Origin: Pseudomonadota bacterium
GTDB lineage: Bacteria; Pseudomonadota; Gammaproteobacteria; Burkholderiales; Sulfuriferulaceae
DNA: 64,000 nucleotides
Assembly (NCBI GenBank): GCA_021795395.1
Contig: JAJYPN010000002.1
Coordinates: 62,001 to 126,000, forward strand
Reading direction: 5' to 3'
Shown here: one piece after another, positions 50,691 to 64,000 of the stretch
How the letters are laid out: each line of letters opens with the position of its first letter
Position numbering within the stretch: position 1 is the stretch's first letter
The notes under the pieces: model-generated
Seen by the model: the letters and a program-made list of their open reading frames with translations, nothing else
Told to the model about the DNA's origin: nothing
Database searches by the model: none
Program-made: the position numbers and the translations under genes

Positions 50691-50952
50691 CAATTAAACG
50701 TAGCAGCAGGAATAGACGTACAGTGACATGAGTCATTAATACAGTTTATGCTACTATTGTAAGACTGTTACCGTCAACATTTAAAGATTTTACAGAAATT
50801 TCGGCCATACATCCGCACGGAAAGGAAGTATTTATTCTCAATAACGCTATAATTTATTACAATGGATGGCAGGCTCGCGAATGATCTATTATTTGCAGCA
50901 TCGCCAATTTGATAATCAAAACGTTTATTTGAAATCATGCCAAGGATGTTTC

Positions 50953-51177
50953 ATGAAACCTCAACCGCCTGCTTGCGCGCGCAAGCTCGGCCCCCTGCAG
51001 GTTGCGCTGCTGGCCGTTCCTTGCATTGCCGTGCTCGTCGTACCGTTTTATAACCGTATCGATCCCGTCCTGTTCGGCATCCCTTTTTTATATTGGTGGC
51101 TGGGCTTATGGGCGCCACTCAGCAGTCTGTTCATTGCTCTCGCCTATAAAACCTCCGCTCAGTCCTCCTTGCAATAA
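50953..51177 (+). CDS. DUF3311 small membrane protein, symporter partner
   Basis: 74-residue protein from the ATG at 50953, preceded by AAGGA; a longer frame to 50866 exists but is not needed. It has two hydrophobic helices (LQVALLAVPCIAVLVVPFYN and FLYWWLGLWAPLSSLFIALAY) and the DUF3311 motif PFYNRIDPVLFGIPFLYWW. DUF3311 genes typically sit directly before a sodium:solute symporter of the SSS family, as here, with a 5-base gap. It probably acts as a small subunit of the transporter, by analogy to the DUF485/acetate permease pairs. Confidence 0.85.
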   Translation: MKPQPPACARKLGPLQVALLAVPCIAVLVVPFYNRIDPVLFGIPFLYWWLGLWAPLSSLFIALAYKTSAQSSLQ

Positions 51178-51182
51178 CGATC

Positions 51183-52721
51183 ATGAATATAACCGCCAGT
51201 GTGATTTTCGTCGGCCTGTTCGTATTGATCGCCTTTCTCGGATTCGCCGCTTCGCGCTGGCGAAGCGGCGATCTCTCGCAATTGCACGAATGGGGGCTGG
51301 GCGGACGCCGGTTCGGCACATGGATCTCCTGGTTCCTGATCGGCGGCGACCTCTATACCGCTTACACGTTCATCGCCGTGCCGGCGCTCGTTTTCAGCGT
51401 CGGCGCGTTCGGCTTCTTCGCGATCCCCTTCACCGTGCTGGCCTATCCGCTGACCTTTTCGCTCTTGCCGCGACTATGGGCGGTATCGCAACGGCATAAT
51501 TTCATAACAGCGTCCGATTTCGTACGGTCGCGCTTCGACAGCCCGGGGCTGGCACTGGTCATTGCCGTTACCGGCATCGTCGCCACCATGCCCTATATCG
51601 CTTTGCAATTGGTCGGCATCCAGGTCGTCATCGGCGCGCTCGGTTTTCCGAATCACGGCTGGACCGCCGATCTGCCTTTGACCATCGCCTTCATCGTGCT
51701 CGCCGTGTTCACTTACACCAGCGGCTTGCGCGCGCCCGCCGTGATCGCCGTCGTCAAGGATTTGCTGGTTTACGTCACCGTCATCGCGGTAATGATCGTC
51801 GTACCGATGAAAATGGGCGGCATGCACGCCATATTCGCCGCGATTCCCCAGAGCAAGCTGCTGCTGACGCCGCCTGACGGCAACAGTTTCGGCCAGTATT
51901 CCTCGTTCATCACGCTGGCGCTCGGTTCAGCCTTTGCCGTCATGCTCTATCCGCACGCATTGACCGCGCTGTTGAGCGCTCGCAGTTCGGATACCCTGCG
52001 GCGCAACTGGATATTCCTGCCGGCGTATTCGCTCATGCTCGGCTTTATCGCGCTGATGGGTTACTTCGCCTATTCCGCAGGCCTTGACAAACTGCCCGAA
52101 TTCAAATCCTATTTCGCCGATTACCATGCGCAATTCGCGGTACCGGGGCTGCTGCTGCATTTTTTCCCGCCCTGGTTCGTCGGCATCGGTTTCGCCGCCG
52201 TAGCGATCGGCGCGCTGGTGCCTGCCGCGATCATGTCGATCGCCGCCGCCAACCTGTTCACCCGCAACATCTACAGGGAATATATCAATCCCGATTGCAC
52301 CGATGCGCAGGAATCCGGCATGGCCAAACTGATTTCATTACTGGTGAAATTCGGCGCTTTGCTCTTCATCGTGCTGATCCCGCAGCAATACGCCATCAAT
52401 CTGCAACTGCTCGGCGGCATCCTCATCCTGCAAATCCTGCCCTCGATAGCAACCGGTCTCTATACCCGCTGGTTCGACGGCAAAGCCCTGCTGCTAGGCT
52501 GGTCCGCCGGCGTCGCGTACGGGGCCTGGATGGTATCGACCCTGAGCTTCAAAGCCAGCGTGTACACCTTGCATATCTTCGGCCATGACATAGCCGGCTA
52601 CGCAGGATTTTATGCGCTGCTGCTGAACCTGGCCGTCGCCGTCGCCGCTACGGTCGTCATACGCGCGGCGGGGCTGGATTCGAAAGGCGATGGGACTCTA
52701 GCGGCGGATTATGTAAGTTGA
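51183..52721 (+). CDS. Sodium:solute symporter family permease (monocarboxylate type)
   Basis: 512-residue SSS-family transporter with about thirteen hydrophobic helices. Family stretches are GGRRFGTWISWFLIGGDLYTAYTFIAVPA, FDSPGLALVIAVTGIVATMPYIALQLVG, and ALVPAAIMSIAAANLFTRNIYREY. With its DUF3311 partner it resembles monocarboxylate (pyruvate, lactate or acetate) permeases such as rhizobial MctP. The substrate is inferred only. The following 680 bases hold decayed sequence, so the operon probably ends here. Confidence 0.85.
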   Translation: MNITASVIFVGLFVLIAFLGFAASRWRSGDLSQLHEWGLGGRRFGTWISWFLIGGDLYTAYTFIAVPALVFSVGAFGFFAIPFTVLAYPLTFSLLPRLWAVSQRHNFITASDFVRSRFDSPGLALVIAVTGIVATMPYIALQLVGIQVVIGALGFPNHGWTADLPLTIAFIVLAVFTYTSGLRAPAVIAVVKDLLVYVTVIAVMIVVPMKMGGMHAIFAAIPQSKLLLTPPDGNSFGQYSSFITLALGSAFAVMLYPHALTALLSARSSDTLRRNWIFLPAYSLMLGFIALMGYFAYSAGLDKLPEFKSYFADYHAQFAVPGLLLHFFPPWFVGIGFAAVAIGALVPAAIMSIAAANLFTRNIYREYINPDCTDAQESGMAKLISLLVKFGALLFIVLIPQQYAINLQLLGGILILQILPSIATGLYTRWFDGKALLLGWSAGVAYGAWMVSTLSFKASVYTLHIFGHDIAGYAGFYALLLNLAVAVAATVVIRAAGLDSKGDGTLAADYVS

Positions 52722-52793: not shown

Positions 52794-53390
52794 TCAATCT
52801 GTCAAAAATATGGAAAGACGGTTCAAAGTTCGGGACAGACTGTCAGCAAGTAACTTAGCCTGGTCAACATTCCATTTATCATGGACAAACTCACTCAAAC
52901 GTACGTTGTATAGCGGCCCGATTGACGCAGATGAACCAGACGCTGGCGCCAATTCCTGAGCTAAACGCTTTTTTCGGCTTCCACGGGCCAAGTTAATTAA
53001 GGTGCGTTTCGGGTTCTCCTCTGCCTCCGGCACGTGCGGTACTTTACCAATTGCGACATGGAGGAACTCGGCAATGCCTTCTCGATCTGCAAGTAACCAT
53101 GCTTCGACCTCTTTTATAGCAATTCTAAATAGTAGTTGTGGGGGAGATCAACGACATTCCAATTGTTCAATAAGGCTGATGCAAGGATAATGATCTAAAT
53201 CAGTCAACACCACATGCGGCAACGCATAACTGGATGTTCTGTATTTTTCTTGCATTCCGAGCTTAATCCGCGAGTTTCCACGCTCATTAGGATTTTTATA
53301 TATCGATCCGTCGGACTCTTGCGTAGCCTGTGACTGATCGGTCTTCCGCTTGCCAACAAAGCCCGCATATTGTAGAATGGCGGCGGAAAT
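52794..53390 (-). pseudogene. Decayed DUF4276-like gene with an in-frame TGA
   Basis: On the minus strand one frame reads RIKLGMQEKYRTSSYALPHV, then VVLTDLDHYPCISLIEQLEC, a TGA at 53150-53148, and then PPQLLFRIAIKEVEAWLLAD. It continues with PKRTLINLARGSRKKRLAQE and NVRLSEFVHDKWNVDQAKLL to a stop at 52794. The pattern (TDLD, C-x-x-LI, FRIAIKEVEAWLLADR, PKRTLINLAR, GPLYN) recalls DUF4276 proteins, Toprim-like and common in mobile or defence-type settings. No clear start is seen. The stretch is more AT-rich than its neighbours, pointing to acquired DNA now in decay. Family assignment is from memory of the motif pattern. A 76-codon plus-strand frame at 52729 is taken as a shadow. Confidence 0.55.
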
Positions 53391-53408: not shown

Positions 53409-53681
53409 ATGCTAGGTACAATTCCCCAGGACTTTTACAACGAAATCGCGGAATTGATGATTGAAAGCCTGAACCTCGAAGTCAAACTCGCCGATATCGA
53501 TCCGGATGCGCCTTTATACAACGAGGGGCTGGGGCTGGATTCGATCGACGTACTCGAGATAGCGCTGGTGGTTTCCAAGCGTTACGGTCTGCAATTGCGT
53601 GCGGACGATGCCAACAATCAGCATATTTTCGGTTCTCTGCGCAACCTGGCCGACCATATCGCGGCACAGCGTACCCGCTGA
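53409..53681 (+). CDS. Acyl carrier protein of the polyene-type cluster
   Basis: 90-residue carrier protein. The phosphopantetheine site is GLDSIDVLE with Ser45. The sequence IPQDFYNEIAELMIESLNLE at the start and the absence of other domains match stand-alone ACPs in aryl polyene clusters, where the chain is built on such carriers. The gene is the first of a tightly packed set and its stop overlaps the next start (53681). The intergenic region before it (53391-53408) is short, so the promoter may lie inside the decayed gene. Confidence 0.9.
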   Translation: MLGTIPQDFYNEIAELMIESLNLEVKLADIDPDAPLYNEGLGLDSIDVLEIALVVSKRYGLQLRADDANNQHIFGSLRNLADHIAAQRTR

Positions 53682-54322
53682 TGGCTTCTGCCGGCCGTAC
53701 GCTGAGCGGTTTCGGCGTCGCGGCCGCGATGTGCGGTTACGCCCTGCTCGCCAATTATACCAACCAGTCCGGTAATGCAAGCTTAGGCATAACCGTCGCC
53801 CTGACGCCATTGATAATGGCAGTATTGCTGTTTGCCGGTCGATCATCGCATCGGCTCGTCATGCTGACGTTAACCGCCGTCGCGGGCGTCTCCGCCGTGC
53901 TGGCGTGGCCACTGCTCAAGCAGCATTACGGCTGGATATACTGGATGGAACACGAGACCATGCAACTGAGTTTATTTGCGACGTTCGCCCGTACCCTGGT
54001 CTCCGGTCGCCAGCCTTTGTGCGCCCGTTACGCGGAAATCATGCACGGCACCCTGAACGAAGCCCATAGCCGTTACGCCCGCTCGGTCACGGTTGCCTGG
54101 ACGGTATTTTTCGGCATCATGATTATCGTATCGACCAGCCTGTTTTTCCTGTTTTCATTGGGAATCTGGTCGATATTTTCCAACTTTATTTTTCTGCCGC
54201 TGGTTGCGCTGATGTTTATCGTCGAGTTTTCAGTACGTAAACGCGCGCTGCCCGACGTCGAGCATACCGGTGTAATAGAAGCGCTACGAACCTATCGGAA
54301 CATGTCGGGGCAATACCGCTGA
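53681..54322 (+). CDS. COG4648-type membrane protein of polyene clusters
   Basis: 213-residue membrane protein with about five or six hydrophobic helices (ITVALTPLIMAVLLFAG, LTLTAVAGVSAVLAWPLL, VAWTVFFGIMIIVSTSLFFLFSLG). WIYWMEHETMQLSLFATFARTLVSGRQPLCARYAE and SRYARSVTVAWTVFF are typical of the COG4648 family that follows ACP genes in aryl polyene clusters. Its biochemical role is unknown; it may organise the membrane synthase. It overlaps the ACP gene by one base. Confidence 0.8.
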   Translation: MASAGRTLSGFGVAAAMCGYALLANYTNQSGNASLGITVALTPLIMAVLLFAGRSSHRLVMLTLTAVAGVSAVLAWPLLKQHYGWIYWMEHETMQLSLFATFARTLVSGRQPLCARYAEIMHGTLNEAHSRYARSVTVAWTVFFGIMIIVSTSLFFLFSLGIWSIFSNFIFLPLVALMFIVEFSVRKRALPDVEHTGVIEALRTYRNMSGQYR

Positions 54323-54337
54323 TCTGGTTGACCAATT

Positions 54338-55990
54338 ATGACCGCCACCCCCTTATTATCGCATAACGCCCCCGACCAGATCGTCGCCTGGCAACATGGC
54401 AGGAGCATCACCGTCCGGCAATTTCTGGCGGACGTTTATCATCTGGCCGATAATTTGCCCGCCGCGACGCATATCCTGAATCTGTGTAGCGATCGCTATC
54501 ATTTTTCCGTCGGCCTGGCGGCGGCGATAGTCCGAAAAAAAATCAGCCTGCTGCCGCCTTCCCTGGACCCGGCAGGCATCGACCAGCTTAAACGCTATAC
54601 ACCCGACCTATTCTGCCTTTGCGATAGCGCAGAATCGCCGGTTGATTTACCGCAATTCCGCTACTTGCCGGCACCGGAAACTTCCGAAGTATGCCAAGCC
54701 GTCCCCGAACTCGACCATGATTTATGCGTCGCGATCGTCTTTACCTCGGGAAGCACAGGCCTGCCGCAGGCGCACCGTAAAACCTGGGGGATGCTTGCCT
54801 ACACCGCCCAGGCGGGTGCCCGGCGCCTGGGATTGCACGGCAATAACTCCTACGCTTTTGTCGGCACCGTACCGTCGCAGCATATGTACGGCCTGGAATC
54901 GACGCTCATCATGGCTTGGCAAAGCGGCAACGCGCTATGCCACGCGCATCCGTTTTATCCGGCCGATATAGTTCAGGCTCTCGCCGCTATCCCTGCCCCC
55001 CGGATACTGATTTCCACCCCCTTCCATTTGCGTACGTTATTCGATTCCGGACTGGAAATTCCTGCAACGGATTTAATCGTATCGGCGACCGCGCCCTTAT
55101 CGGCCTCTCTCGCGCATCAAATCGAAACGCAGTACCGGACGATTTTGCAGGAAATATACGGCACTACCGAAACCGGCATTATTGCAACGCGGCGACCGAC
55201 TCTCAGCAATGAATGGCAATTATTGCCGGGCACGATCCTGCTGGAAGAAGACGGCAAAATGTGCGCCGCGAACTTATATATCGATCCGCCGATGGCAGTC
55301 AGCGATATCATGGAACTGTGCGGCAGCGACCGGTTTTTATTGCACGGCAGAACCGCCGATTTAATCAATATCGCTGGCAAACGCAATTCGCTGGCGAATC
55401 TGGATCTTCAACTCAACAGCATTCCCGGCGTGGTCGATGGCGTCTATTTCATGCCCGATGAAACTCAATCCGATCGCGTAACACGGCTTGCCGCCTTTGT
55501 CGTCGCGCCGGGAATGGAAGCGCAAACCTTGATAAACGCGCTGCGGCAGCGCATGGATCCCGTATTTCTGCCCCGACCGCTCGTTTTCGTAGCCGAACTG
55601 CCGCGTACTGCGACCGGCAAGCTGCCGCGCGCCAGTCTGCAATCGCTGCTGGATGCGCATATTCGAAGCCGCAGGGCGGATCAAGCGGTTCACACTGTCG
55701 TTCCACCCGACCATCCGGCTTTTGCCGGTCATTTCCCGGGCATGCCGATATTGCCCGGAGTGGTTCTGCTCGATTGGGCATTGCAGGCCATTGCCGAAAG
55801 CAAAGAGATGATTCCCGAACGCTACACCATCAATTCGGTCAAATTCCTCAGCCCGGCTTATCCCGGCGACCCGCTTACGCTCGTTCACGAATCATCGAAT
55901 AGCGGCGCCATCCGCTTCGATATCCGTTCGGACACCCGCAAGATTGCCGCCGGCAGTCTGTTATTCAACCCGCCATTGCCTGATGCCTAA
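54338..55990 (+). CDS. Acyl-AMP ligase fused to a hotdog dehydratase
   Basis: 550-residue fusion. Residues 1 to about 430 form an AMP-dependent synthetase with IVFTSGSTGLPQAHRKTW (residues 134-151), LQEIYGTTETGIIATR, and PRTATGKLPRASLQSLL with the catalytic Lys. Residues about 445-550 form a FabZ-type hotdog with PDHPAFAGHFPGMPILPGVV, containing the catalytic His, and IPERYTINSVKFLSPAYPGD. In aryl polyene clusters the ligase loads the aryl starter on the ACP and a separate hotdog protein dehydrates the chain; here both are on one chain. The starter acid is not shown by the sequence. Confidence 0.87.
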   Translation: MTATPLLSHNAPDQIVAWQHGRSITVRQFLADVYHLADNLPAATHILNLCSDRYHFSVGLAAAIVRKKISLLPPSLDPAGIDQLKRYTPDLFCLCDSAESPVDLPQFRYLPAPETSEVCQAVPELDHDLCVAIVFTSGSTGLPQAHRKTWGMLAYTAQAGARRLGLHGNNSYAFVGTVPSQHMYGLESTLIMAWQSGNALCHAHPFYPADIVQALAAIPAPRILISTPFHLRTLFDSGLEIPATDLIVSATAPLSASLAHQIETQYRTILQEIYGTTETGIIATRRPTLSNEWQLLPGTILLEEDGKMCAANLYIDPPMAVSDIMELCGSDRFLLHGRTADLINIAGKRNSLANLDLQLNSIPGVVDGVYFMPDETQSDRVTRLAAFVVAPGMEAQTLINALRQRMDPVFLPRPLVFVAELPRTATGKLPRASLQSLLDAHIRSRRADQAVHTVVPPDHPAFAGHFPGMPILPGVVLLDWALQAIAESKEMIPERYTINSVKFLSPAYPGDPLTLVHESSNSGAIRFDIRSDTRKIAAGSLLFNPPLPDA

Positions 55991-55992
55991 CC

Positions 55993-56913
55993 ATGGCTGC
56001 CCGGACGCCACACTGGACCGACATGCAGGAGCGCAGCAATATGGTCATGCTGCGTATCATGACCTGGATTTCCCTGCATCTTGGACGACGCGCCAGCCGG
56101 TTGATATTACACGGCATCGCCGGCTATTTCCTGTTGTTTTCGCCGCATAGCCGCAGCGCTTCGCGCGCATATCTGCTACAGGTGCTCGGCCGCCAGCCGA
56201 AATGGTCCGACCTCTACCGGCATTTTTTCAGTTTCGCCAGCACCATACACGACCGCATCTACCTCGTTAACCGGCGATTCGACCTGTTCGATTTCGAACT
56301 GCACGGCACCGAGCTTTTGCACAAGCTTGTTGCCGAGGGCCGCGGCCTGTTTCTGCTCGGCGCGCATCTGGGCAGTTTCGAAGTCTTGCGCTCGCTGGGC
56401 ATCGCCCATCCCGAGTTGCGCGTCGCGATGGTCATGCACGAAGCGCATGCCCAGAAAGTCAACGCCATACTCGGTGTCATCAATCCCGCGGTGATGCAAG
56501 ACATTATCGCACTGGGCAAAATCGAATCCATGCTGACGGTAAACGAACGTCTCGATGCCGGTTATCTGGTGGGCATGCTGGCGGATCGCGCACCGAACGA
56601 CGACACCATGCGACCGGTGCAATTTCTCGGCAGTGCGGCCTGCATTCCGGAAGGTCCGTTCCGCATGGCGGCGCTATTGCGCCGTCCGGTCCTTTTCATG
56701 ACCGGTTTGTATCTCGGAGGAAACCGCTACCGCATCCATTTTGACGAGTTGGCGGATTTTACCGGCACTCCCCGTAGCGAACGCAACACGGTCGTCACGC
56801 AAGCGATGACGGATTATGCCGCCCTGCTTGATCGCTATTGCCGTGCAGCGCCGTATAACTGGTTTAATTTTTTCGATTTCTGGCAGCTTCCTGCCGGAAC
56901 ACGGCCGCCATGA
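55993..56913 (+). CDS. LpxL/HtrB-like lysophospholipid acyltransferase
   Basis: 306-residue acyltransferase of the LPLAT family (COG4261-like). An N-terminal amphipathic or hydrophobic region (IMTWISLHLGRRASRLILHGIAGYFLLF) precedes the catalytic H-x4-E motif in LLGAHLGSFEVLRSLG. It is likely to transfer the finished polyene or a fatty acyl chain to a membrane anchor, the role proposed for acyltransferases in aryl polyene clusters. It starts two bases after the ligase gene and overlaps the next gene by 4 bases. Confidence 0.83.
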   Translation: MAARTPHWTDMQERSNMVMLRIMTWISLHLGRRASRLILHGIAGYFLLFSPHSRSASRAYLLQVLGRQPKWSDLYRHFFSFASTIHDRIYLVNRRFDLFDFELHGTELLHKLVAEGRGLFLLGAHLGSFEVLRSLGIAHPELRVAMVMHEAHAQKVNAILGVINPAVMQDIIALGKIESMLTVNERLDAGYLVGMLADRAPNDDTMRPVQFLGSAACIPEGPFRMAALLRRPVLFMTGLYLGGNRYRIHFDELADFTGTPRSERNTVVTQAMTDYAALLDRYCRAAPYNWFNFFDFWQLPAGTRPP

Positions 56914-57494
56914 TGCTACGTCTGATATTTTTGCCCGCAACGCTCGCCGTAGTCATGTTGCTCGGCGCGACTGCCGCTGACGCCGCCGACTGGGATATCG
57001 ACCAGCTTATGCAAATGCTGGCTCAGGTACACAGCAGCCATGCGGCATTCAACGAAATAAAAACGGTGGCGCTACTCGATAAACCTCAGGTTTCATCGGG
57101 CGAACTGATTTACAGAGCGCCGGATTATTTCGAGAAGCGCACCTTGCGTCCCCGGGCCGAAACGCTGATACTCAACGGCGATACCGTCCTCATCGCCCGC
57201 GGCCAGAAACATTACCTGCTGACACTCGCCGACTACCCGGAAATCGCAGCCTTTACCGCCAGCCTGCGCGGCACGCTGGCCGGCAACCGGCAGATGCTGC
57301 GACGCTCGTACGCGCTCAGCCTGACCGGATCGCAAGCGCACTGGCAGCTGCAATTGCTGCCCACCGACAGCCGGATCAAGGATAAAATAATGCGCATCTT
57401 CATCCGCGGCGCCGATAACGAATTGCGCAGCATCGAAATCATTCAGACCGACGGCGACAGATCGATAACGACGATCGCCAGCCCGGCGCCATGA
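56910..57494 (+). CDS. LolA-like periplasmic lipid carrier
   Basis: 194-residue protein with a signal peptide (LPATLAVVMLLGATAADAAD, cleavage near residue 26) and a beta-rich LolA-like body (FNEIKTVALLDKPQVSSGELIYRAPDYFEKRTL). COG2834-type proteins of this kind accompany the exporter in aryl polyene clusters and probably shuttle the polyene lipid from the inner to the outer membrane. Overlaps of 4 bases with both neighbours suggest tight coupling. Confidence 0.82.
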   Translation: MMLRLIFLPATLAVVMLLGATAADAADWDIDQLMQMLAQVHSSHAAFNEIKTVALLDKPQVSSGELIYRAPDYFEKRTLRPRAETLILNGDTVLIARGQKHYLLTLADYPEIAAFTASLRGTLAGNRQMLRRSYALSLTGSQAHWQLQLLPTDSRIKDKIMRIFIRGADNELRSIEIIQTDGDRSITTIASPAP

Positions 57495-59833
57495 ACTTAC
57501 GCCGCCGTTATTACGCACTAACGCTGTGGCTAGCGTTTTTGCTGGCCTGCATCGCCGTCATCGGTCGAACGCACTTCACTACCGACTTATCCGCTTTTTT
57601 GCCGCGCGCGCCCACCGCCCAGCAACGGTTGCTGGTAAATCAGATCCGTGACGGTTTTGCCTCGCGGCTGATCCTGATCGGGCTGGAAGGCGGAAACGCC
57701 GACGGTCGAGCCGCACTGTCGAAAAAAATGGCGAAGCAACTGCGCGCCGATCCGCAATTTGCCGGCGTCAATAACGGCGAGGCCGCGTATGCCGGCAACG
57801 ACCGGACTTTTCTCCTCAATCACCGCTACCTGCTCAGCGCACAAATTTCTCCCAGCCATTTCAGCGTCACCGGCCTGCACAACGCCTTGAGCGACAGCAT
57901 CGACCTGCTGTCGTCGGCCGCCGGTTTATGGCTGAAACCGCTGTTTACGCGCGACCCGACCGGCGAAATGTTGCAGATCGCCGAGCAGATCCGACCGGGG
58001 CATGCTCCCGCTATCTTGAACGGCGTATGGTCTTCCGCCGACGGCAAGCGCGCGCTGCTGCTGGCACAAACGCGCGCCGAGGGCTCCGACACCGATGCGC
58101 AGCAACGCGCCATGGCCGCTATCCGCCAGGCATACCGATCGGCATCGGGCGACCGCCCGCAATACCGGCTGCTGATGACCGGGCCGGGCGTATTTTCGGT
58201 CACGGCGCGCGATGCCATCAAGACTCAGGTGACCCGGCTGTCGCTGATCGGCAGCAGCCTCATTGCGCTCATATTGTTGCTGGTCTATCGTTCCCCTGCG
58301 GCCTTGCTGCTCGGCTTGCTGCCGGTAGCCAGCGGCGCGCTCGCCGGGATTGCCGCAGTCAGCCTCGGCTTCGGCGAAGTACACGGCATCACGCTGGGCT
58401 TCGGCACGGCGCTGATCGGCGAAGCGGTCGATTATTCGATCTACCTTTTTATCCAATCGGGGGGCGATACCGGACGCGAGCGCTGGATTGACCGTTTCTG
58501 GCCGGTTGTACGGCTGGGTGTACTTACTTCTGTCGCAGGTTTCGCCTCGCTGTTGTTCTCCAGCTTCCCGGGCCTCGCGCAACTCGGCTTGTACGCGATT
58601 ACCGGGCTGGTTGTCGCCGCTGCGGTAACGCGCTTCGTTTTGCCGCTATTGCTGCCGGACGGTTTCCGTATCCGCGATGTCGCGCCGATGGGTCTGAAAC
58701 TGGCCAACGGGGTACGGCGCGCGCGGCATTGGCGCTGGGGCGTAGTGCTGATCGCCGGGATGGCGTGCGTAACGCTCTACATGCATCGCACCGATTTATG
58801 GAGTCGGGACCTGTCTGCGCTCAGCCCGGTTTCCCCACGCGAACTCGCGCTCGATGCCGAACTGCGCAAGGATACCGGTGCGCCCGATGTGCGTTATCTG
58901 ATCGTCGTTCCGGCCGGCAGCGAAGAAGCTGCCCTCGTTTCCGCTGAACGCGCTGCCGCTCCGTTGCAAACCCTGATCGCACAGGGCAAGCTGGCGGGAT
59001 ACGATAGCGCCGCTCGTTATTTGCCGAGCGCCGCCACGCAACGCGCGCGACAGGCCAGCTTGCCCGATGCGGCGACGCTGGCGCAGCGCTTGCCGCTGGC
59101 GATAGGCGACTTGCCGGTACACGCGCAACGCTTTGCGCCGTTCATGGCCGATATCGCCGCCGCGCGCCGCGGGCCACTCGTCCATCGCGCCGATCTCGAC
59201 CATACTTCGCTGGCGATGGCGGTCGATGCCTTATTATTGCACCGCGGGGCGCAATGGAGCGCCTTGCTGCCGCTTACCGCCAACGCCAGCGGCTCCATTT
59301 CGCGCCACGATATCCTTGCCGCGTTACAACGTGCACAATTGCCGCAGGCGGAATTCGTCGACCTGAAATCGGAGTCCGACCATTTATACGCCGATTATCT
59401 TAACCAGGCGATCAAGCTGTCGACGGCCGGTTTGCTGCTCATTATCGTACTGCTGCTGTTCAGTCTGCACTCGATACCCCGCGTACTTCGCGTCATTGCG
59501 CCGCTCGCCGCCGCTGTCGTCACCGTCGCCGCCGGTCTCAGTCTGATAGGGCAACCCCTGCTTATCATGCATTTGATCGGCTTACTGCTGGTGGTGGCGA
59601 TAGGCTCGAATTACGCGCTGTTTTTCGACCGCGGCACCGGTCACGGCAACATGGCGCCGCAGACGCTGGCTTCGCTGTTTTTCGCCAATCTGACTACTGT
59701 CGCCGGTTTCGGCCTGCTCGCTTTTTCCAGCGTGCCGATACTGCAAGCGCTCGGCGTCACCGTAGCTCCGGGAGTGGTATTCGCACTGATATATTCCGCC
59801 ATATTGAGCAACAAGAAGGCGTCGCCGTCATGA
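57491..59833 (+). CDS. RND/MMPL-family lipid exporter
   Basis: 780-residue transporter in two repeated halves. Each half has one helix, a large periplasmic domain and five helices, for example LIGSSLIALILLLVYRSPAALLLGLLP with GLGTALIGEAVDYSIYLF-like sequence (here GFGTALIGEAVDYSIYLFIQ), and the second half IKLSTAGLLLIIVLLLFSL and LLLVVAIGSNYALFF. This is the COG4258 group found in aryl polyene clusters, smaller than drug-efflux RND pumps. It likely extracts the polyene lipid from the inner membrane and hands it to the LolA-like carrier encoded next to it. Confidence 0.87.
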   Translation: MNLRRRYYALTLWLAFLLACIAVIGRTHFTTDLSAFLPRAPTAQQRLLVNQIRDGFASRLILIGLEGGNADGRAALSKKMAKQLRADPQFAGVNNGEAAYAGNDRTFLLNHRYLLSAQISPSHFSVTGLHNALSDSIDLLSSAAGLWLKPLFTRDPTGEMLQIAEQIRPGHAPAILNGVWSSADGKRALLLAQTRAEGSDTDAQQRAMAAIRQAYRSASGDRPQYRLLMTGPGVFSVTARDAIKTQVTRLSLIGSSLIALILLLVYRSPAALLLGLLPVASGALAGIAAVSLGFGEVHGITLGFGTALIGEAVDYSIYLFIQSGGDTGRERWIDRFWPVVRLGVLTSVAGFASLLFSSFPGLAQLGLYAITGLVVAAAVTRFVLPLLLPDGFRIRDVAPMGLKLANGVRRARHWRWGVVLIAGMACVTLYMHRTDLWSRDLSALSPVSPRELALDAELRKDTGAPDVRYLIVVPAGSEEAALVSAERAAAPLQTLIAQGKLAGYDSAARYLPSAATQRARQASLPDAATLAQRLPLAIGDLPVHAQRFAPFMADIAAARRGPLVHRADLDHTSLAMAVDALLLHRGAQWSALLPLTANASGSISRHDILAALQRAQLPQAEFVDLKSESDHLYADYLNQAIKLSTAGLLLIIVLLLFSLHSIPRVLRVIAPLAAAVVTVAAGLSLIGQPLLIMHLIGLLLVVAIGSNYALFFDRGTGHGNMAPQTLASLFFANLTTVAGFGLLAFSSVPILQALGVTVAPGVVFALIYSAILSNKKASPS

Positions 59834-60642
59834 CTGCCTCTGCACCGGCTCGCTGGCGACCGCCGTTACTGGTTCGACTATCGGCAGGATTGCATCTGAT
59901 CGCCGTTTCGCTCGTAGTTATCGATCCTGCCGCATGGACAATCGCGCTGACCCTCATCATCGCCGATCATCTGTTCATCACCGCAGTCGGCCTGTGGCCG
60001 CGCAGTACCTGGCTGGGCGCCAACTGGAACCGTCTGCCGGCAGCCGCGCGCGAACGCAACGAAATCAGCCTGACCATCGACGACGGCCCCGATCCCGAAG
60101 TCACTCCGCACGTGCTGGAAATACTGGATCGGTATCAGGTCAAAGCCAGCTTTTTCTGCATCGCCGACCGGGCGGAGCGCTACCCCGAACTGTGTCGCGA
60201 GATCGTGAAACGCGGGCACGATGTGGAAAACCATACCCAACATCATCGGCACACCTTTTCCCTGCTCGGCAGCCAAGGCTACCGCCGCGAAATCAAATCG
60301 GCGCAAGCCGTATTGCACGCCATTACCGGCACGGCACCGCAATTTTTCCGCGCACCGGCCGGTCTGCGCAATCCTTTCCTCGCCCCCGTTCTGCACCGGC
60401 TCAATTTACAGTTGGCCAGCTGGTCGGTGCGCGGTTACGATACCCGGACACGCGATGCGAATCGAGTCAAAAACAGATTATTACGCGGCCTGCGCGCCGG
60501 CGCCATATTACTGCTGCACGACGGCAACGCCGCACGGACTTCGGATCGTATCCCTGTCATACTCGCGGTGCTGCCGGAATTATTGGAAACCGCTGCCGCA
60601 GCGCGTTTGCGATTTGTACGCTTGCGTCAGGTCACGCATTAA
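59830..60642 (+). CDS. Polysaccharide deacetylase (NodB/CE4 domain)
   Basis: 270-residue protein with two N-terminal hydrophobic segments (LSAGLHLIAVSLVVIDPAAW and ALTLIIADHLFITAVGLW), then a CE4 domain. Metal and catalytic residues are in TIDDGPDPEV (Asp84, Asp85) and ENHTQHHRH (His135, His139), followed by FFRAPAGLRNP and ILLLHDG. All core motifs are present, so activity is likely. It would remove an N-acetyl group from a sugar-bearing lipid on the inner membrane. This suggests the polyene product carries an amino sugar; the substrate is inferred. It overlaps the exporter gene by 4 bases and is followed by a 178-base gap. Confidence 0.87.
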   Translation: MTASAPARWRPPLLVRLSAGLHLIAVSLVVIDPAAWTIALTLIIADHLFITAVGLWPRSTWLGANWNRLPAAARERNEISLTIDDGPDPEVTPHVLEILDRYQVKASFFCIADRAERYPELCREIVKRGHDVENHTQHHRHTFSLLGSQGYRREIKSAQAVLHAITGTAPQFFRAPAGLRNPFLAPVLHRLNLQLASWSVRGYDTRTRDANRVKNRLLRGLRAGAILLLHDGNAARTSDRIPVILAVLPELLETAAAARLRFVRLRQVTH

Positions 60643-60820
60643 AAACAATCGTCGGGATCCGATTGCGAACGGCTATAATTTGGTAAAATCCTGTCTGCAG
60701 GCTGACAATAACATGGAGACTCCTCGCTGCTGCGATTCGGGAGTCGATATTCATGAAATGACCTGTCTACCAGATCGATGCATTAATTTCGATTACCTAA
60801 ACATTACACGGCGACTGCTT
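60643..60820 (+). promoter_or_regulatory. Gap before the ketosynthase gene with a 12-base direct repeat
   Basis: The only sizeable gap in the cluster. It contains a TATAAT at 60674-60679 without a matching -35. ACATTACACGGC occurs at 60801-60812 and again at 60841-60852, exactly 40 bases apart. The second copy encodes the start of the ketosynthase fold (HYTATS); the first copy encodes HYTATA in another frame, so it looks like a relic of a duplicated 5' end. Two in-frame ATGs (60713, 60758) give longer, unusual N-termini for the ketosynthase. Confidence 0.4.
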
Positions 60821-62017
60821 TTGAAATCCTTGTTACTCTCACATTACACGGCAACCAGCTGTCTCGGTCGCGGTCTGCAACAAACGCTGGAAGCATTGCG
60901 TCTGGGGCGATCGGGGCTGGCGCCCTGTACATTCGAAACAGTAGCGCTGGACACCTTTGCCGGCGAAGTCGCGGGCGTGGATGCGGTAAAGCTGCCTGAG
61001 CGTCTTTCCGAGTTCGATTGCCGCAACAATCGGCTGGCGCAGCTGGCGCTGGAGCAGGATGATTTCAGCACCGTCGTCGATATTGCCGCCGCCAGATATG
61101 GTCGCGACCGGATAGGCGTTTTCGTGGGAACCAGCACTTCCGGTATATTGCAAACCGAGCTTGCCTATCGGCATCGCGATCCAGCGAGCGGCGCATTGCC
61201 CGCTGATTTTCATTACGCGGCCACGCACAATACCTTTTCGGTCGCCGATTTCACCCGGCGTTATCTGAATTTGACCGGTCCGGCGGTCGCGCTTTCCTCG
61301 GCGTGTTCTTCCAGCGCCAAAGTATTTGGCTCGGCGCAGCGAATGATGGCGGCGGGACTGATCGATGCGGCGGTAGTGGGCGGCGTCGATAGCTTGTGTC
61401 TGACGGTGCTGTACGGCTTTAATGCGCTCGGTCTCACTTCGACGCGACCATGCCGGCCGTTCGATGCGGCGAGAGACGGCATTTCCATCGGCGAAGCCGG
61501 TGCGTTTGCGCTGCTCGAATCCGCAACCGAAGTCCATGAAGGCGACGTGTTGTTGCTTGGCGTCGGCGAATCCAGCGATGCCTACCACATGTCCTCGCCT
61601 CACCCGCAAGGCACCGGTGCGCGGATGGCGATGCAAGCCGCCCTCGATAGCGCCGGTTTGCTTGCACGCGACATCGATTACATCAATTTGCACGGCACGG
61701 CGACGCAAAGCAATGATGCCGCCGAAGGCATGGCCGTTAACGCCATTTTCGGCGATCGGGTGCCGTGCAGTTCCACCAAGGCGGCGACCGGCCATACCTT
61801 AGGGGCTGCGGGTAGCATCGAAGCCGTCATTTGCGCCCTGGCCTTACGATACAGATTGCTGCCCGGCGGGCTCAATATCGGGCAACTCGATCCCGGCATA
61901 GCGCTTGATTACCTGACGGCGAATCGCAGCCATCCCATTATGCGCGCCATGAGCAATTCGTTCGGCTTCGGCGGCACCAATTGCAGCCTGATTTTCGGCA
62001 GGGCGCAATCGCAATGA
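60821..62017 (+). CDS. Beta-ketoacyl-ACP synthase (FabF/KAS II-like)
   Basis: Condensing enzyme of about 398 residues from a TTG at 60821 (MKSLLLSHYTATSCLGRGL). ATGs at 60758 and 60713 are also in frame, so the start is unsure. The active-site triad is complete: Cys162 in LSSACSSSAKVFG, His291 in NLHGTATQSND, and His325 in ATGHTLGAAGSIEA. YTATSxLGRGL at the start and GRSGLAPCTFE are typical of aryl polyene cluster ketosynthases. It would extend the polyene with malonyl units. It overlaps the next gene by 4 bases (ATGA). Confidence 0.88.
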   Translation: MKSLLLSHYTATSCLGRGLQQTLEALRLGRSGLAPCTFETVALDTFAGEVAGVDAVKLPERLSEFDCRNNRLAQLALEQDDFSTVVDIAAARYGRDRIGVFVGTSTSGILQTELAYRHRDPASGALPADFHYAATHNTFSVADFTRRYLNLTGPAVALSSACSSSAKVFGSAQRMMAAGLIDAAVVGGVDSLCLTVLYGFNALGLTSTRPCRPFDAARDGISIGEAGAFALLESATEVHEGDVLLLGVGESSDAYHMSSPHPQGTGARMAMQAALDSAGLLARDIDYINLHGTATQSNDAAEGMAVNAIFGDRVPCSSTKAATGHTLGAAGSIEAVICALALRYRLLPGGLNIGQLDPGIALDYLTANRSHPIMRAMSNSFGFGGTNCSLIFGRAQSQ

Positions 62018-62811
62018 CCATATTGGCCGCTTACCTGAACGGCATCGGTTTGCTCGGACCGGGATTACCGGGCTGGCAAGCCGGCAAACGCATTCTTGCC
62101 GGCAGCCAGCCTTATTTGCCGACCACCGTGAATCTACCCGTGCCCGTTCTTTTGCCGCCCGCCGAACGCCGCCGCAGCAGCGCTATCGTCAAGCTGACGC
62201 TTGCAGTCGGACTCGAAGCCGCAACGGCGGCCGGCATCGAGCCGGCGGCATTGCCTTGCGTATACGTCTCGTCGGGCGGCGATGGCCATAATTGCCATGA
62301 AATCTGCCAAACGCTGGCATCGGATGACCGACATATTTCCCCGACCCGTTTTCATAATTCGGTGCACAATGCCGCACCCGGTTACTGGGGCATCGCTACC
62401 GGCTCCATGACGCCGGTGTCGGTACTGGCGGCATTCGATGCGAGTTTCGGCGCCGGTCTGCTGGAGTTGCTGGCGATGGTGACGGCGAATCGCGCTGCTG
62501 CGCTGCTGATCGCCTGCGATACGCCGTATCCCGAGCCTTTGCATGGCGTACGGCCGATGCCCGGCATGTTTGGCGTAGCGCTGGCGGCAACCGCCGAACC
62601 CAACGCACATTCCATGGTTCAGATTCGGGTCGAGCTCACCCGGGACCGCGCGGATACGCTGACGGATATCGGCTTCGAGGCCTTGCGCCGGAGTATTCCC
62701 TCGGCGCGCAGTCTGCCTTTATTGCAGGCGATCGCGCAAACTCAAGCCGCCCGGGTTACTCTCGATTATCTCGATCGAACCCGGATTGCCATAGAGCTGA
62801 TTCCATGCTGA
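62014..62811 (+). CDS. Ketosynthase N-terminal-like protein (chain-length-factor-type partner)
   Basis: 265-residue protein from the ATG at 62014 that resembles only the N-terminal half of a ketosynthase (PF13723 type): AYLNGIGLLGPGLPGWQAG, PPAERRRSSAIVKLTLAVGLEAA, and RFHNSVHNAAPGYWGIATG. The nucleophile Cys is absent (the region reads VLAAFDASFGAGLLELLAM), and the second-half His motifs are missing because the protein is short. Such proteins pair with an active ketosynthase in polyene clusters and may set chain length. It overlaps both neighbours. Confidence 0.8.
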   Translation: MTILAAYLNGIGLLGPGLPGWQAGKRILAGSQPYLPTTVNLPVPVLLPPAERRRSSAIVKLTLAVGLEAATAAGIEPAALPCVYVSSGGDGHNCHEICQTLASDDRHISPTRFHNSVHNAAPGYWGIATGSMTPVSVLAAFDASFGAGLLELLAMVTANRAAALLIACDTPYPEPLHGVRPMPGMFGVALAATAEPNAHSMVQIRVELTRDRADTLTDIGFEALRRSIPSARSLPLLQAIAQTQAARVTLDYLDRTRIAIELIPC

Positions 62812-63287
62812 ATAACGGCATACTATTTAACACGCAGCCCGACAAGACATGGATCGCTGCCCATATTCCGCACCGGGACGACATGTGCCTGCTCGATCGG
62901 GTAGTCGCCTGGGACGAGCATCGGTTGCGTTGCGTGGCTGGCAGTCATCGACTGGCGGATAACCCCCTGAGAGCGAACGATCGCCTCAGTGCCGTCTGCG
63001 CCATCGAATACGCCGCGCAGGCGATGGCTGTCCACGGCGCTTTGCTGGATGCCGCCGAAAATACCCGGCCGCGTGCCGGCATGCTCGTCAGCGTACGCGA
63101 AACGGCTATCCATACGCTGCGTCTCGACAATCTTGCGGCCGATCTCGATATCGAAGTCGAGTGCATCCATCGAAACGCGGCCAATATACTGTATCGATTC
63201 AAGGTTCAGGCCGACGGCAAGCCGCTGGCGGACGGCCGCGCCGCGGTGATACTCGATATCGATCCGGCGAGAGGCATAGCGTCATGA
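62805..63287 (+). CDS. Hotdog-fold 3-hydroxyacyl-ACP dehydratase
   Basis: 160-residue hotdog protein of the COG4706 type. The central helix is IEYAAQAMAVHGALL, with the putative catalytic His in AHIPHRDDMCLLDRV near residue 22. It would dehydrate the beta-hydroxyacyl intermediate to give the conjugated double bonds, acting beside the hotdog domain fused to the ligase. It overlaps the upstream gene by 7 bases and the ketoreductase by 4. Confidence 0.83.
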   Translation: MLNNGILFNTQPDKTWIAAHIPHRDDMCLLDRVVAWDEHRLRCVAGSHRLADNPLRANDRLSAVCAIEYAAQAMAVHGALLDAAENTRPRAGMLVSVRETAIHTLRLDNLAADLDIEVECIHRNAANILYRFKVQADGKPLADGRAAVILDIDPARGIAS

Positions 63288-64000
63288 AACAGGCTTTGGT
63301 CACCGGCGGCAGCGGCGGCATAGGTGCGGCCATCTGCCGCAGGCTGGCAGCCGACGGGCATCATGTGCTGATCCATGCCAACAGCAACATCCAAACCGCG
63401 GAAACGCTGGCCGCGGAACTCAATGCAGACGGCTATAGCGCTCAGCCCGTCGGTTTTGACATCACCGATCACGACGCGGTGCTGGCGGCGTTGAACCCGC
63501 TGACGGAACGAGCGCCGATCCAGATTCTGATCAACAATGCAGGCATACATGACGACGCGGCCTTTCCCGGCATGACGCCGCAACAATGGCAGCGCGTTCT
63601 CGACGTATCGGTCAACGGCTTTTATCATGTCACGCACACGCTGATGATGCCGATGATACGCACGCGCTGGGGACGAATCGTGAATCTGTCGTCGATCGCC
63701 GCAATCACCGGAAACCGCGGCCAGGTCAATTATGCCGCGGCGAAAGGGGCAATCAATTCGGCAACCCGATCGCTGGCGCTGGAACTGGCCAGCCGCAGTA
63801 TTACCGTCAACGCGGTCGCTCCGGGGATTATCGATACGGCCATGAGCGAAACAGCTTTCGATACCGACACCATCGCCCGGCTGGTGCCGATGAAACGCGC
63901 CGGCACGCCGGCCGAAGTCGCTGACCTGATCGGTTTTCTTGTGTCGCCGCAGGCCGCTTACATAACCGGCCAGATCATTTCCATCAACGGCGGGATGATT
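63284..64000 (+). CDS. 3-oxoacyl-ACP reductase (FabG-like), cut by window end
   Basis: NADPH-dependent SDR reductase of the polyene chain. The 239 visible residues have the cofactor motif TGGSGGIGAA near the start, NNAGI, LSS, and the YxxxK motif with Tyr150 and Lys154 (NYAAAKGAINS). NAVAPGIIDTAM and the C-terminal GQIISINGGMI follow, so only the last few residues are missing. It overlaps the hotdog gene by 4 bases (ATGA). In aryl polyene clusters a further ketosynthase usually follows, which would be outside this window. Confidence 0.9.
   Translation, partial: MKQALVTGGSGGIGAAICRRLAADGHHVLIHANSNIQTAETLAAELNADGYSAQPVGFDITDHDAVLAALNPLTERAPIQILINNAGIHDDAAFPGMTPQQWQRVLDVSVNGFYHVTHTLMMPMIRTRWGRIVNLSSIAAITGNRGQVNYAAAKGAINSATRSLALELASRSITVNAVAPGIIDTAMSETAFDTDTIARLVPMKRAGTPAEVADLIGFLVSPQAAYITGQIISINGGMI

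What the first reader, a model, noticed from the sequence alone, without database searches (positions are those of the whole stretch)
53409..64000. Aryl-polyene-like cluster with fused ligase-dehydratase and a polysaccharide deacetylase
ACP, COG4648 protein, ligase, acyltransferase, LolA carrier, MMPL exporter, ketosynthase, ketosynthase-like partner, dehydratase and reductase match the aryl polyene pathway. The ligase and one dehydratase are one polypeptide, and a membrane-attached CE4 deacetylase is embedded between exporter and ketosynthase. This suggests a lipid with an amino sugar whose acetyl group is removed. Ammonia-lyase, thioesterase and glycosyltransferase are not in the visible part, so the product may differ from known aryl polyenes.
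Basis: partly seen in the sequence, partly recalled or inferred. Interest (0 to 1): 0.7.

Follow-up and report, generated by a model that had tools for sequence, protein, structure and literature searches.

The report
Yellow-pigment (aryl polyene) gene cluster
This is a xanthomonadin-type pigment-lipid gene cluster of a kind already described, with a sugar-deacetylase gene whose presence is in print but whose job is not, and a joined pair of enzymes that has joined several times in related bacteria.

Summary
Window 53409-64003 encodes ACP, COG4648 protein, ligase-dehydratase fusion, LpxL-like acyltransferase, LolA, MMPL exporter, CE4 deacetylase, ketosynthase, chain-length-factor partner, ApeP-like dehydratase and reductase. 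The 'missing' glycosyltransferase straddles the window edge on the minus strand, followed by a PlsC-type acyltransferase; they match the GT half of E. coli ApeJ and ApeD. The assembly (92.8% complete) has UbiC but showed no aromatic ammonia-lyase, halogenase or second KASIII, so a 4-hydroxybenzoate-primed, non-brominated, dialkylresorcinol-free aryl polyene is most likely.

The CE4 gene is not new to such clusters: arcuflavin (arcN) and flexirubin clusters list it without function (PMC3949708, PMC3992019). It lies in recognisable clusters in 54 of 80 named loci, but in a class-wide sample only 6 of 28 genomes with a strong MMPL match have it within 5 kb. The ligase-dehydratase fusion is real but recurrent: 10 of 61 ligases, five changes on a tree.

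Worth follow-up: these CE4s share an altered motif 4 (Arg for the first Asp, no aromatic residue) and a predicted cytoplasmic catalytic domain, suggesting a lipid-linked amino-sugar substrate. That step is inferred.

The parts
53350..53378 (+). promoter-like TTGCCA-17-TAGAAT upstream of the ACP gene
   Evidence: consensus match 10 of 12; 11 promoter-like sites found in the region against a mean of 8.1 in shuffles, so not evidence of function
53409..53681 (+). acyl carrier protein (ApeE-like)
   Evidence: PF00550 8.9e-9, NCBIfam NF006617 133.9 bits over cut-off 70; 48% id to E. coli ApeE; DSI serine motif
53681..54322 (+). COG4648-like membrane protein (ApeG-like)
   Evidence: 36% over 47 aa with ApeG, 7.8e-5; homologs in the same place in relatives
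54338..55990 (+). ligase (about 1-440) fused to ApeI-like hot-dog dehydratase (about 441-550)
   Evidence: AMP-binding 1.3e-15, AMP-binding_C 1e-6, ApeI-like 1.9e-5 (under cut-off); 27% to ApeH and 39% over 54 aa to ApeI
55993..56913 (+). LpxL-like acyltransferase (C-terminal half of E. coli ApeJ)
   Evidence: PF03279 1.2e-8; 30% to ApeJ residues 243-552
56910..57494 (+). LolA-like carrier (ApeL-like)
   Evidence: PF19574 LolA_3 3.6e-29
57491..59833 (+). MMPL/RND exporter (ApeM-like)
   Evidence: PF03176 1.8e-20; 26% to ApeM
59830..60642 (+). membrane-anchored CE4 deacetylase (ArcN-type by gene context), two N-terminal hydrophobic segments
   Evidence: PF01522 1.3e-29; motifs TIDDGP 82, HTQHH 135, RAPAG 174, WSVRGYD 198, LLHD 228; homolog follows MMPL in 10 of 10 same-genus clusters fetched, in one (L051) with a gene between
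60821..62017 (+). ketosynthase (ApeO-like), Cys-His-His motifs intact
   Evidence: NCBIfam NF006618 554 bits over cut-off 407; 45% to ApeO; SACSS, HGTAT, GHTLGAAG
62014..62811 (+). ketosynthase-like chain-length factor (ApeC-like)
   Evidence: PF13723 2.7e-26; 31% to ApeC
62805..63287 (+). ApeP-like dehydratase
   Evidence: PF22817 1.1e-5, 25.6 bits, under the 27 cut-off
63284..64000 (+). FabG-type 3-ketoacyl reductase (ApeQ-like); ends at 64003 outside the window
   Evidence: PF00106 2.9e-53; 42% to ApeQ
63984..64000 (-). 3' end of a family-2 glycosyltransferase (N-terminal half of ApeJ); the whole frame is window 63984-64835, followed by an ApeD-like PlsC acyltransferase at 64772-65623, outside the window
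   Evidence: L005 12835-11984 and 13623-12772; PF00535 1.7e-17 and PF01553 2.6e-12; 39% to ApeJ 6-242 and 28% to ApeD

Best explanation
The cluster makes a xanthomonadin-like aryl polyene lipid. UbiC elsewhere in the genome supplies 4-hydroxybenzoate; the ligase domain loads it on the ACP; ketosynthase-CLF, reductase and the two dehydratases extend it to a polyene, and joining one dehydratase to the ligase does not change the route. The PlsC- and LpxL-type acyltransferases and the glycosyltransferase build the lipid anchor, and MMPL plus LolA carry the product to the outer membrane. The CE4 protein, held by two membrane helices with its catalytic domain on the cytoplasmic side, removes an N-acetyl group from a hexosamine that the glycosyltransferase put on the lipid, before export, leaving a free amine that can be acylated (perhaps by the LpxL-type enzyme) or stays as a charged head group. 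Shown: gene content, order, conservation, presence of the catalytic residues. Inferred: starter, topology, substrate, order of steps.
For: Ten of 13 cluster proteins match the E. coli ape cluster by BLASTP, LolA by phmmer. CE4 follows MMPL in 10 of 10 same-genus clusters fetched, one with a gene between; 10 of the 17 other same-genus genomes searched have the homolog. 54 of 80 named CE4 loci lie in recognisable clusters, 50 of the 65 in L057-L121; in those 50 MMPL, LolA and the acyltransferase are present in all, GT2 in 34 and PlsC in 33, many loci being cut short. CE4 also lies near GT2 and PlsC, without polyketide genes in the stretch held, in L116 and L124. Metal triad, base Asp, motif-3 Arg and acid His are invariant or nearly so in 49 aligned sequences. 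Two hydrophobic segments in 34 of 36 sequences, mean net charge +1.9 / +0.1 / +2.0 before, between and after them, which puts the catalytic domain inside by the positive-inside rule. The motif-4 aromatic residue that stacks on a neighbouring sugar in polymer-acting CE4s (PMC5855634 passages) is Thr here, fitting a single lipid-linked sugar. A divergent 240-aa CE4 sits in two clusters of another family, L140 and L142 (Pfam run on L140's only). UbiC present; ammonia-lyase, halogenase and a second KASIII not found.
Against: No substrate or product was tested. No sugar is reported for arcuflavin or flexirubin in the parts read. CE4 is dispensable for the pathway in general: E. coli's cluster lacks it, 7 of 17 same-genus genomes have no CE4 match, and in the class sample only 6 of 28 genomes with MMPL above 300 bits have a CE4 match within 5 kb. 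Close homologs also occur with no cluster in the stretch held: L047, L048, L052 (same order), L157 and, apart from a GT2 and an antiporter, L156, and the 20.8-kb Paraburkholderia loci L080, L081, L088. The first Asp of motif 4 is Arg in 54 of 54 in-cluster named CE4s; a CE4 protein with Arg at that site, BA0330, showed no activity on common substrates (PMC4505593 passages).
Confidence: 0.55

Rival explanations
1. Same aryl polyene cluster, but CE4 acts after export in the periplasm, on the glycolipid head group or on peptidoglycan or LPS near the attachment site.
For: The solved relatives nearest by sequence profile include peptidoglycan GlcNAc deacetylases such as 2c1g, which work outside the cytoplasm (established knowledge); PMC3992019 proposes that deacetylase, acyltransferase, LolA, GT and exporter genes serve export (passage).
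Against: Charge around the two hydrophobic segments predicts a cytoplasmic domain.
Confidence: 0.2
2. The CE4 protein is an esterase or pseudoenzyme: it hydrolyses or binds an acyl ester (for example an O-acetyl or polyene ester) rather than removing an N-acetyl group.
For: Motif 4 Asp to Arg and loss of the aromatic residue in in-cluster members; BA0330 with Arg at that site lacks activity on common substrates; CE4 includes an acetylxylan esterase (2cc0 in the list).
Against: The direct catalytic and metal residues are invariant or nearly so in 49 aligned sequences; BA0330 also has rearranged motifs, unlike these.
Confidence: 0.2
3. The locus makes a plain unusual fatty-acid glycolipid, not an aryl polyene.
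For: No dedicated starter-making gene in the cluster; no ammonia-lyase found in the assembly and only a weak chorismatase-like match.
Against: The best NCBIfam match of the ligase is 4-coumarate-CoA ligase (111 bits, far under its 334.7 cut-off) and it is 27% identical to ApeH; KS-CLF pair and ApeI- and ApeP-like dehydratases; of 10 same-genus stretches, 4 hold a chorismatase-type and 5 a halogenase-type protein, as xanthomonadin clusters do.
Confidence: 0.05

Closest known systems
arcuflavin loci of Azoarcus sp. BH72 (arcA-L and arcM-X), PMC3949708
   Same: PS-deacetylase (arcN), exporter, LolA, acyltransferase, dehydratase, AMP ligase, hypothetical and ACP in one locus; KS, CLF-like, dehydratase, reductase, GT and acyltransferase in the other (section 18 read). 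Compared by gene list, not by sequence
   Different: Azoarcus BH72 has two unlinked loci, separate ligase and dehydratase, plus halogenase, chorismatase, methyltransferase, arcO and dialkylresorcinol genes; the window genome has one locus and a fusion, and no halogenase or second KASIII was found
E. coli CFT073 aryl polyene cluster apeA-R (PMC8253772; L038)
   Same: synthesis, anchor and export genes homologous
   Different: E. coli has GT2 and LpxL-type acyltransferase fused as ApeJ, plus ApeF, ApeK, ApeN, ApeR, ApeB, ApeA, and no CE4; the window has split ApeJ halves, a fused ligase-dehydratase and CE4
flexirubin cluster of Chitinophaga pinensis (PMC3992019)
   Same: polysaccharide deacetylase, acyltransferase, LolA, GT and exporter in flxP-U (passage seen)
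   Different: tyrosine ammonia-lyase starter and dialkylresorcinol genes; Bacteroidota
CE4 deacetylases such as the peptidoglycan deacetylase 2c1g
   Same: motifs 1, 2, 3 and 5 with metal triad, base and acid
   Different: motif 3 Tyr to Ala, motif 4 first Asp to Arg and Trp to Thr; two N-terminal membrane segments
ArnD/NaxD lipid-linked amino-sugar deformylase/deacetylase (recalled, from no call)
   Same: works-like analogy: a CE4-type enzyme paired with a GT2 on a lipid-linked amino sugar at the inner membrane
   Different: not compared by sequence here; none of the 10 NCBIfam matches listed for the CE4 protein is named ArnD or NaxD

Membership tests
aryl polyene / xanthomonadin-type cluster | KS plus truncated KS-like CLF partner | tested here: met
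   45% to ApeO, 31% to ApeC; PF13723
aryl polyene / xanthomonadin-type cluster | ligase, ACP, two dehydratases, reductase | tested here: met
   ApeI-like and ApeP-like Pfam scores slightly under cut-off
aryl polyene / xanthomonadin-type cluster | GT2, LpxL- and PlsC-type acyltransferases, LolA, MMPL exporter | tested here: met
   (GT2 and PlsC lie beyond the window)
aryl polyene / xanthomonadin-type cluster | aromatic starter supply | tested here: met
   UbiC 102 bits in own genome; specificity of the ligase not testable
aryl polyene / xanthomonadin-type cluster | aryl polyene product | not testable with these tools
   needs pigment extraction and mass spectrometry
brominated xanthomonadin | FAD halogenase and XanB2 chorismatase | tested here: not met
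   no match to a same-genus halogenase (no positive control); chorismatase query gave only a 26% match to a 403-aa protein on another contig; assembly 92.8% complete
arcuflavin/flexirubin (polyene-dialkylresorcinol) | DarB-type KASIII beside the household one | tested here: not met
   one KASIII-family match in the assembly, 337 aa, on the same contig as the FabF-like match
CE4 deacetylase | base Asp, Asp-His-His metal triad, motif-3 Arg, acid His | tested here: met
CE4 deacetylase | motif 4 DxxD(W/Y) | tested here: not met
   WSVRGYDT; first Asp is Arg, aromatic is Thr. It is CE4 by homology (PF01522), with an altered motif 4
CE4 deacetylase | deacetylase activity | not tested
   no assay possible

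The most novel reading that the evidence does not exclude
Aryl polyene, xanthomonadin-like and flexirubin-like clusters of Pseudomonadota, Bacteroidota and Verrucomicrobiota share a CE4 subfamily, marked by W[ST]xR[GAPST]xD in place of the DxxD(W/Y) motif, that deacetylates a lipid-linked amino sugar on the cytoplasmic face. These pigment lipids would then carry an amino-sugar head that deacetylation opens for N-acylation, a deacetylate-then-acylate logic like that of Nod factors (recalled), in one of the commonest bacterial lipid pathways.
Probability: 0.35. Interest if true: 0.55.

Novelty: new member of a known kind. Interest (0 to 1): 0.35.

Why it matters
[quoted passage not shown] That paper says the anchor of the E. 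coli polyene was not known and notes that the X. doucetiae lipid was solved in a preprint, which I could not read. A conserved deacetylase with an unusual active-site motif is a handle on the anchor of the CE4-bearing branch: deleting it in a cultured producer and weighing the lipid would show whether an amino sugar is part of it.

Tried and rejected
Fusion as artefact: rejected, because between ligase and dehydratase there is no stop and no in-frame ATG, GTG or TTG, and the junction differs at many bases from relatives; reads could not be checked. Fusion as a unique novelty: rejected (L141 and L152, not in that tree, also look fused). CE4 as a stray gene between exporter and ketosynthase: rejected. 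CE4 as universal in the pathway: rejected. A different enzyme in the CE4 place of a cluster lacking it (L141): its 574-aa frame has no Pfam match, no conclusion. Other own-genome matches to the CE4 Pfam family (three, on other contigs) were not pursued beyond a look at their motifs.

Control for the motif-4 signature: of 15 other CE4-type hits outside these clusters, L026 and L029 have the canonical Asp and Trp (WSVDSADW, WNIDSLDW) and L025 has WTRSAVDW, but the other 12 gave no alignable motif 4, so the control is thin. Of the 26 named loci not shown in a cluster, 24 also have the Arg, so the signature marks the subfamily and not cluster membership. Two in-cluster CE4s fetched later depart from it (L149 WDVCGLEL, L151 WSLHSRDS).

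Adjacency: a strict count found MMPL directly upstream in only 20 of 65 loci, hampered by overlapping ORF starts; by end coordinates 29 of 54 loci with both genes are directly adjacent and 51 of 54 within 2.2 kb.
Full report
What is there. The window is positions 62001-126000 of a 140,194-base contig in a 2.54-Mb, 57-contig assembly, 92.8% complete. Eleven plus-strand genes run from 53409 to 64003; seven of the ten junctions overlap by 1-7 bases, two have gaps of 2 and 15 bases, and CE4 to KS has 178. Pfam and NCBIfam identify ACP, ligase plus ApeI-like dehydratase, LpxL-like acyltransferase, LolA, MMPL, CE4, ketosynthase, truncated ketosynthase-like partner, ApeP-like dehydratase and reductase. 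Beyond the window, on the opposite strand and converging, lie a family-2 glycosyltransferase (window 63984-64835) and a PlsC-type acyltransferase. In the rest of the 14 kb to the contig end I saw, by eye in the ORF lists, no further polyketide gene.

Against the E. coli CFT073 ape cluster. BLASTP of 13 window-cluster proteins gives ApeE 48%, ApeG 36% over 47 aa, ApeH 27% and ApeI 39% for the two parts of the fusion, ApeM 26%, ApeO 45%, ApeC 31%, ApeQ 42%, ApeD 28%. E. coli ApeJ is a GT2-acyltransferase fusion: residues 6-242 match the window's GT2 (39%) and 243-552 the LpxL-like protein (30%). LolA had no BLASTP match to ApeL but scores 39 bits by phmmer; the ApeP-like dehydratase and CE4 had none. 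No separate gene for ApeK, ApeN, ApeB, ApeA, ApeF or ApeR appeared.

Starter and tailoring. The assembly has UbiC (102 bits) and no aromatic ammonia-lyase match (5 of 14 control genomes do ring), no match to a same-genus halogenase (no positive control), a weak 26% match to a same-genus chorismatase, one KASIII-family match and, apart from the cluster KS, one FabF-like protein and one KS domain in a 2575-aa frame. So the cluster most likely makes a 4-hydroxybenzoate-primed polyene without bromine or dialkylresorcinol. Of 10 same-genus stretches, 4 hold a chorismatase-type (L039, L041, L044, L045), 5 a halogenase-type (L041, L043-L046) and 8 a PAP2-type protein (L039-L046); Pfam was run on the L045 proteins only.

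The fusion. In 10 of 10 same-genus clusters fetched, ligase and dehydratase are separate genes, in most overlapping at ATGA. The window protein (550 aa) equals the sum in L039 and L040, with stop and start lost. Among 61 ligase frames in my fetched loci, 10 are fused (window, L060, L062, L074, L089, L093, L104, L106, L114, L117); a maximum-likelihood tree of the 61 ligase parts needs five changes, which its starred branches also force. Fusion thus recurs in Variovorax, Caballeronia/Paraburkholderia, Brachymonas, a pair of unnamed proteobacteria and this host; L141 and L152, fetched later and not in the tree, look fused too.

The CE4 gene. A CE4 homolog of at least 221 bits is in 10 of the 17 other same-genus genomes searched; the other 7 have none. 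In all 10 it follows MMPL inside the cluster, in L051 with a gene between. Of seven other same-order genomes with a strong match (230 bits or more), L050 and L053 have it inside the cluster, L049 beside KS and FabG genes on a 6.4-kb contig, L054 a little apart from the cluster, and L047, L048 and L052 show no cluster in 13-20 kb. The four others are Bacteroidota or Verrucomicrobiota by record title (L129, L130, L131, L135). Some of the 26 others are on short contigs, but L080, L081 and L088 (Paraburkholderia) show no cluster in 20.8 kb. This sample is drawn by CE4 similarity and cannot show how often clusters have it. The class-wide sample can: 68 of 276 genomes match MMPL and 46 of 276 match CE4 at 1e-10; of the 28 genomes other than the own with MMPL above 300 bits, 6 have CE4 within 5 kb (G111, G179, G134, G246, G120, G245), by my reading of the two tables. 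Two of the 28 (L140, L142) hold a divergent 240-aa CE4 missed by that search. CE4 is thus common in one large branch and optional in the whole.

It is in print. PMC3949708 section 18 lists arcN, 'PS-deacetylase', beside exporter, LolA, acyltransferase, dehydratase, ligase and ACP, and passages report colourless insertion mutants of arcK and arcT. A passage of PMC3992019 names a putative polysaccharide deacetylase in flxP-U and proposes a role in export 'by yet unknown mechanisms'. Searches for aryl polyene, flexirubin or xanthomonadin with deacetylase gave no listing that looked like a functional study; I opened only some of those papers, mostly as passages.

The active site. Against solved CE4s, motif 4 of the profile (WTRRGFDT) aligns with WDVDSLDW of the peptidoglycan deacetylase 2c1g. 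The review PMC5855634 (passages) says a motif-4 Asp tunes the acid His and the aromatic residue stacks on a sugar, mostly in subsite +1; an enzyme lacking that aromatic acts at the reducing end. PMC4505593 (passages) reports Arg in place of Asp388 of SpPgdA in BA0330, which showed no activity on common substrates but also has rearranged motifs. The window CE4 keeps the other catalytic residues, so I favour an active enzyme for a single lipid-linked sugar over a pseudoenzyme, without proof.

Topology. Two hydrophobic peaks precede the domain in 34 of 36 sequences with enough N-terminus, with mean net charge +1.9, +0.1 and +2.0 around them. By the positive-inside rule (established knowledge) the catalytic domain is cytoplasmic, which fits action before MMPL export. 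In L116 and L124 CE4 lies near GT2 and PlsC without polyketide genes in the stretch held, which ties it to the anchor half of the pathway; both stretches are short (3.3 and 8.2 kb).

Verdict. An ordinary, well-formed member of the xanthomonadin/arcuflavin kind. The fusion and the CE4 gene are real but not new. What deserves follow-up is the unexplained CE4 subfamily.

Noticed in passing
G000:C51:23549-24454 (locus L162): The host assembly holds a ketosynthase domain inside a 2575-aa open frame, apparently a large multidomain synthase.
   Followed up: no
window 41755-50601, minus strand: A 2948-aa frame that looks like an NdvB-type cyclic beta-glucan synthase (by eye; not searched).
   Followed up: no
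window 50866-52721: DUF3311 protein followed by a sodium:solute symporter.
   Followed up: partly
L051:6193-6942 and L053:10208-10888: A small alpha/beta-hydrolase gene lies between MMPL and CE4; many named relatives have a gap of about that size there, and the published Azoarcus table has the hypothetical arcO in that place (not compared by sequence). The window cluster has no gene there.
   Followed up: partly
L045:11367-12050 and equivalents in L039-L046: A PAP2-type phosphatase is found in 8 of 10 same-genus stretches (Pfam on L045 only), next to CE4 where gene order was read. It is missing from the window, where 178 bases separate CE4 and KS.
   Followed up: partly
L140:7724-8446 and L142:8133-8855: A divergent CE4 of 240 aa sits in xanthomonadin-like clusters of another family, possibly an independent recruitment (Pfam on L140 only).
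   Followed up: partly
G000:C50:29385-30038 (L137): A 403-aa protein weakly like a same-genus chorismatase (26%); it might be a second benzoate-forming enzyme or just a RidA-like protein.
   Followed up: no
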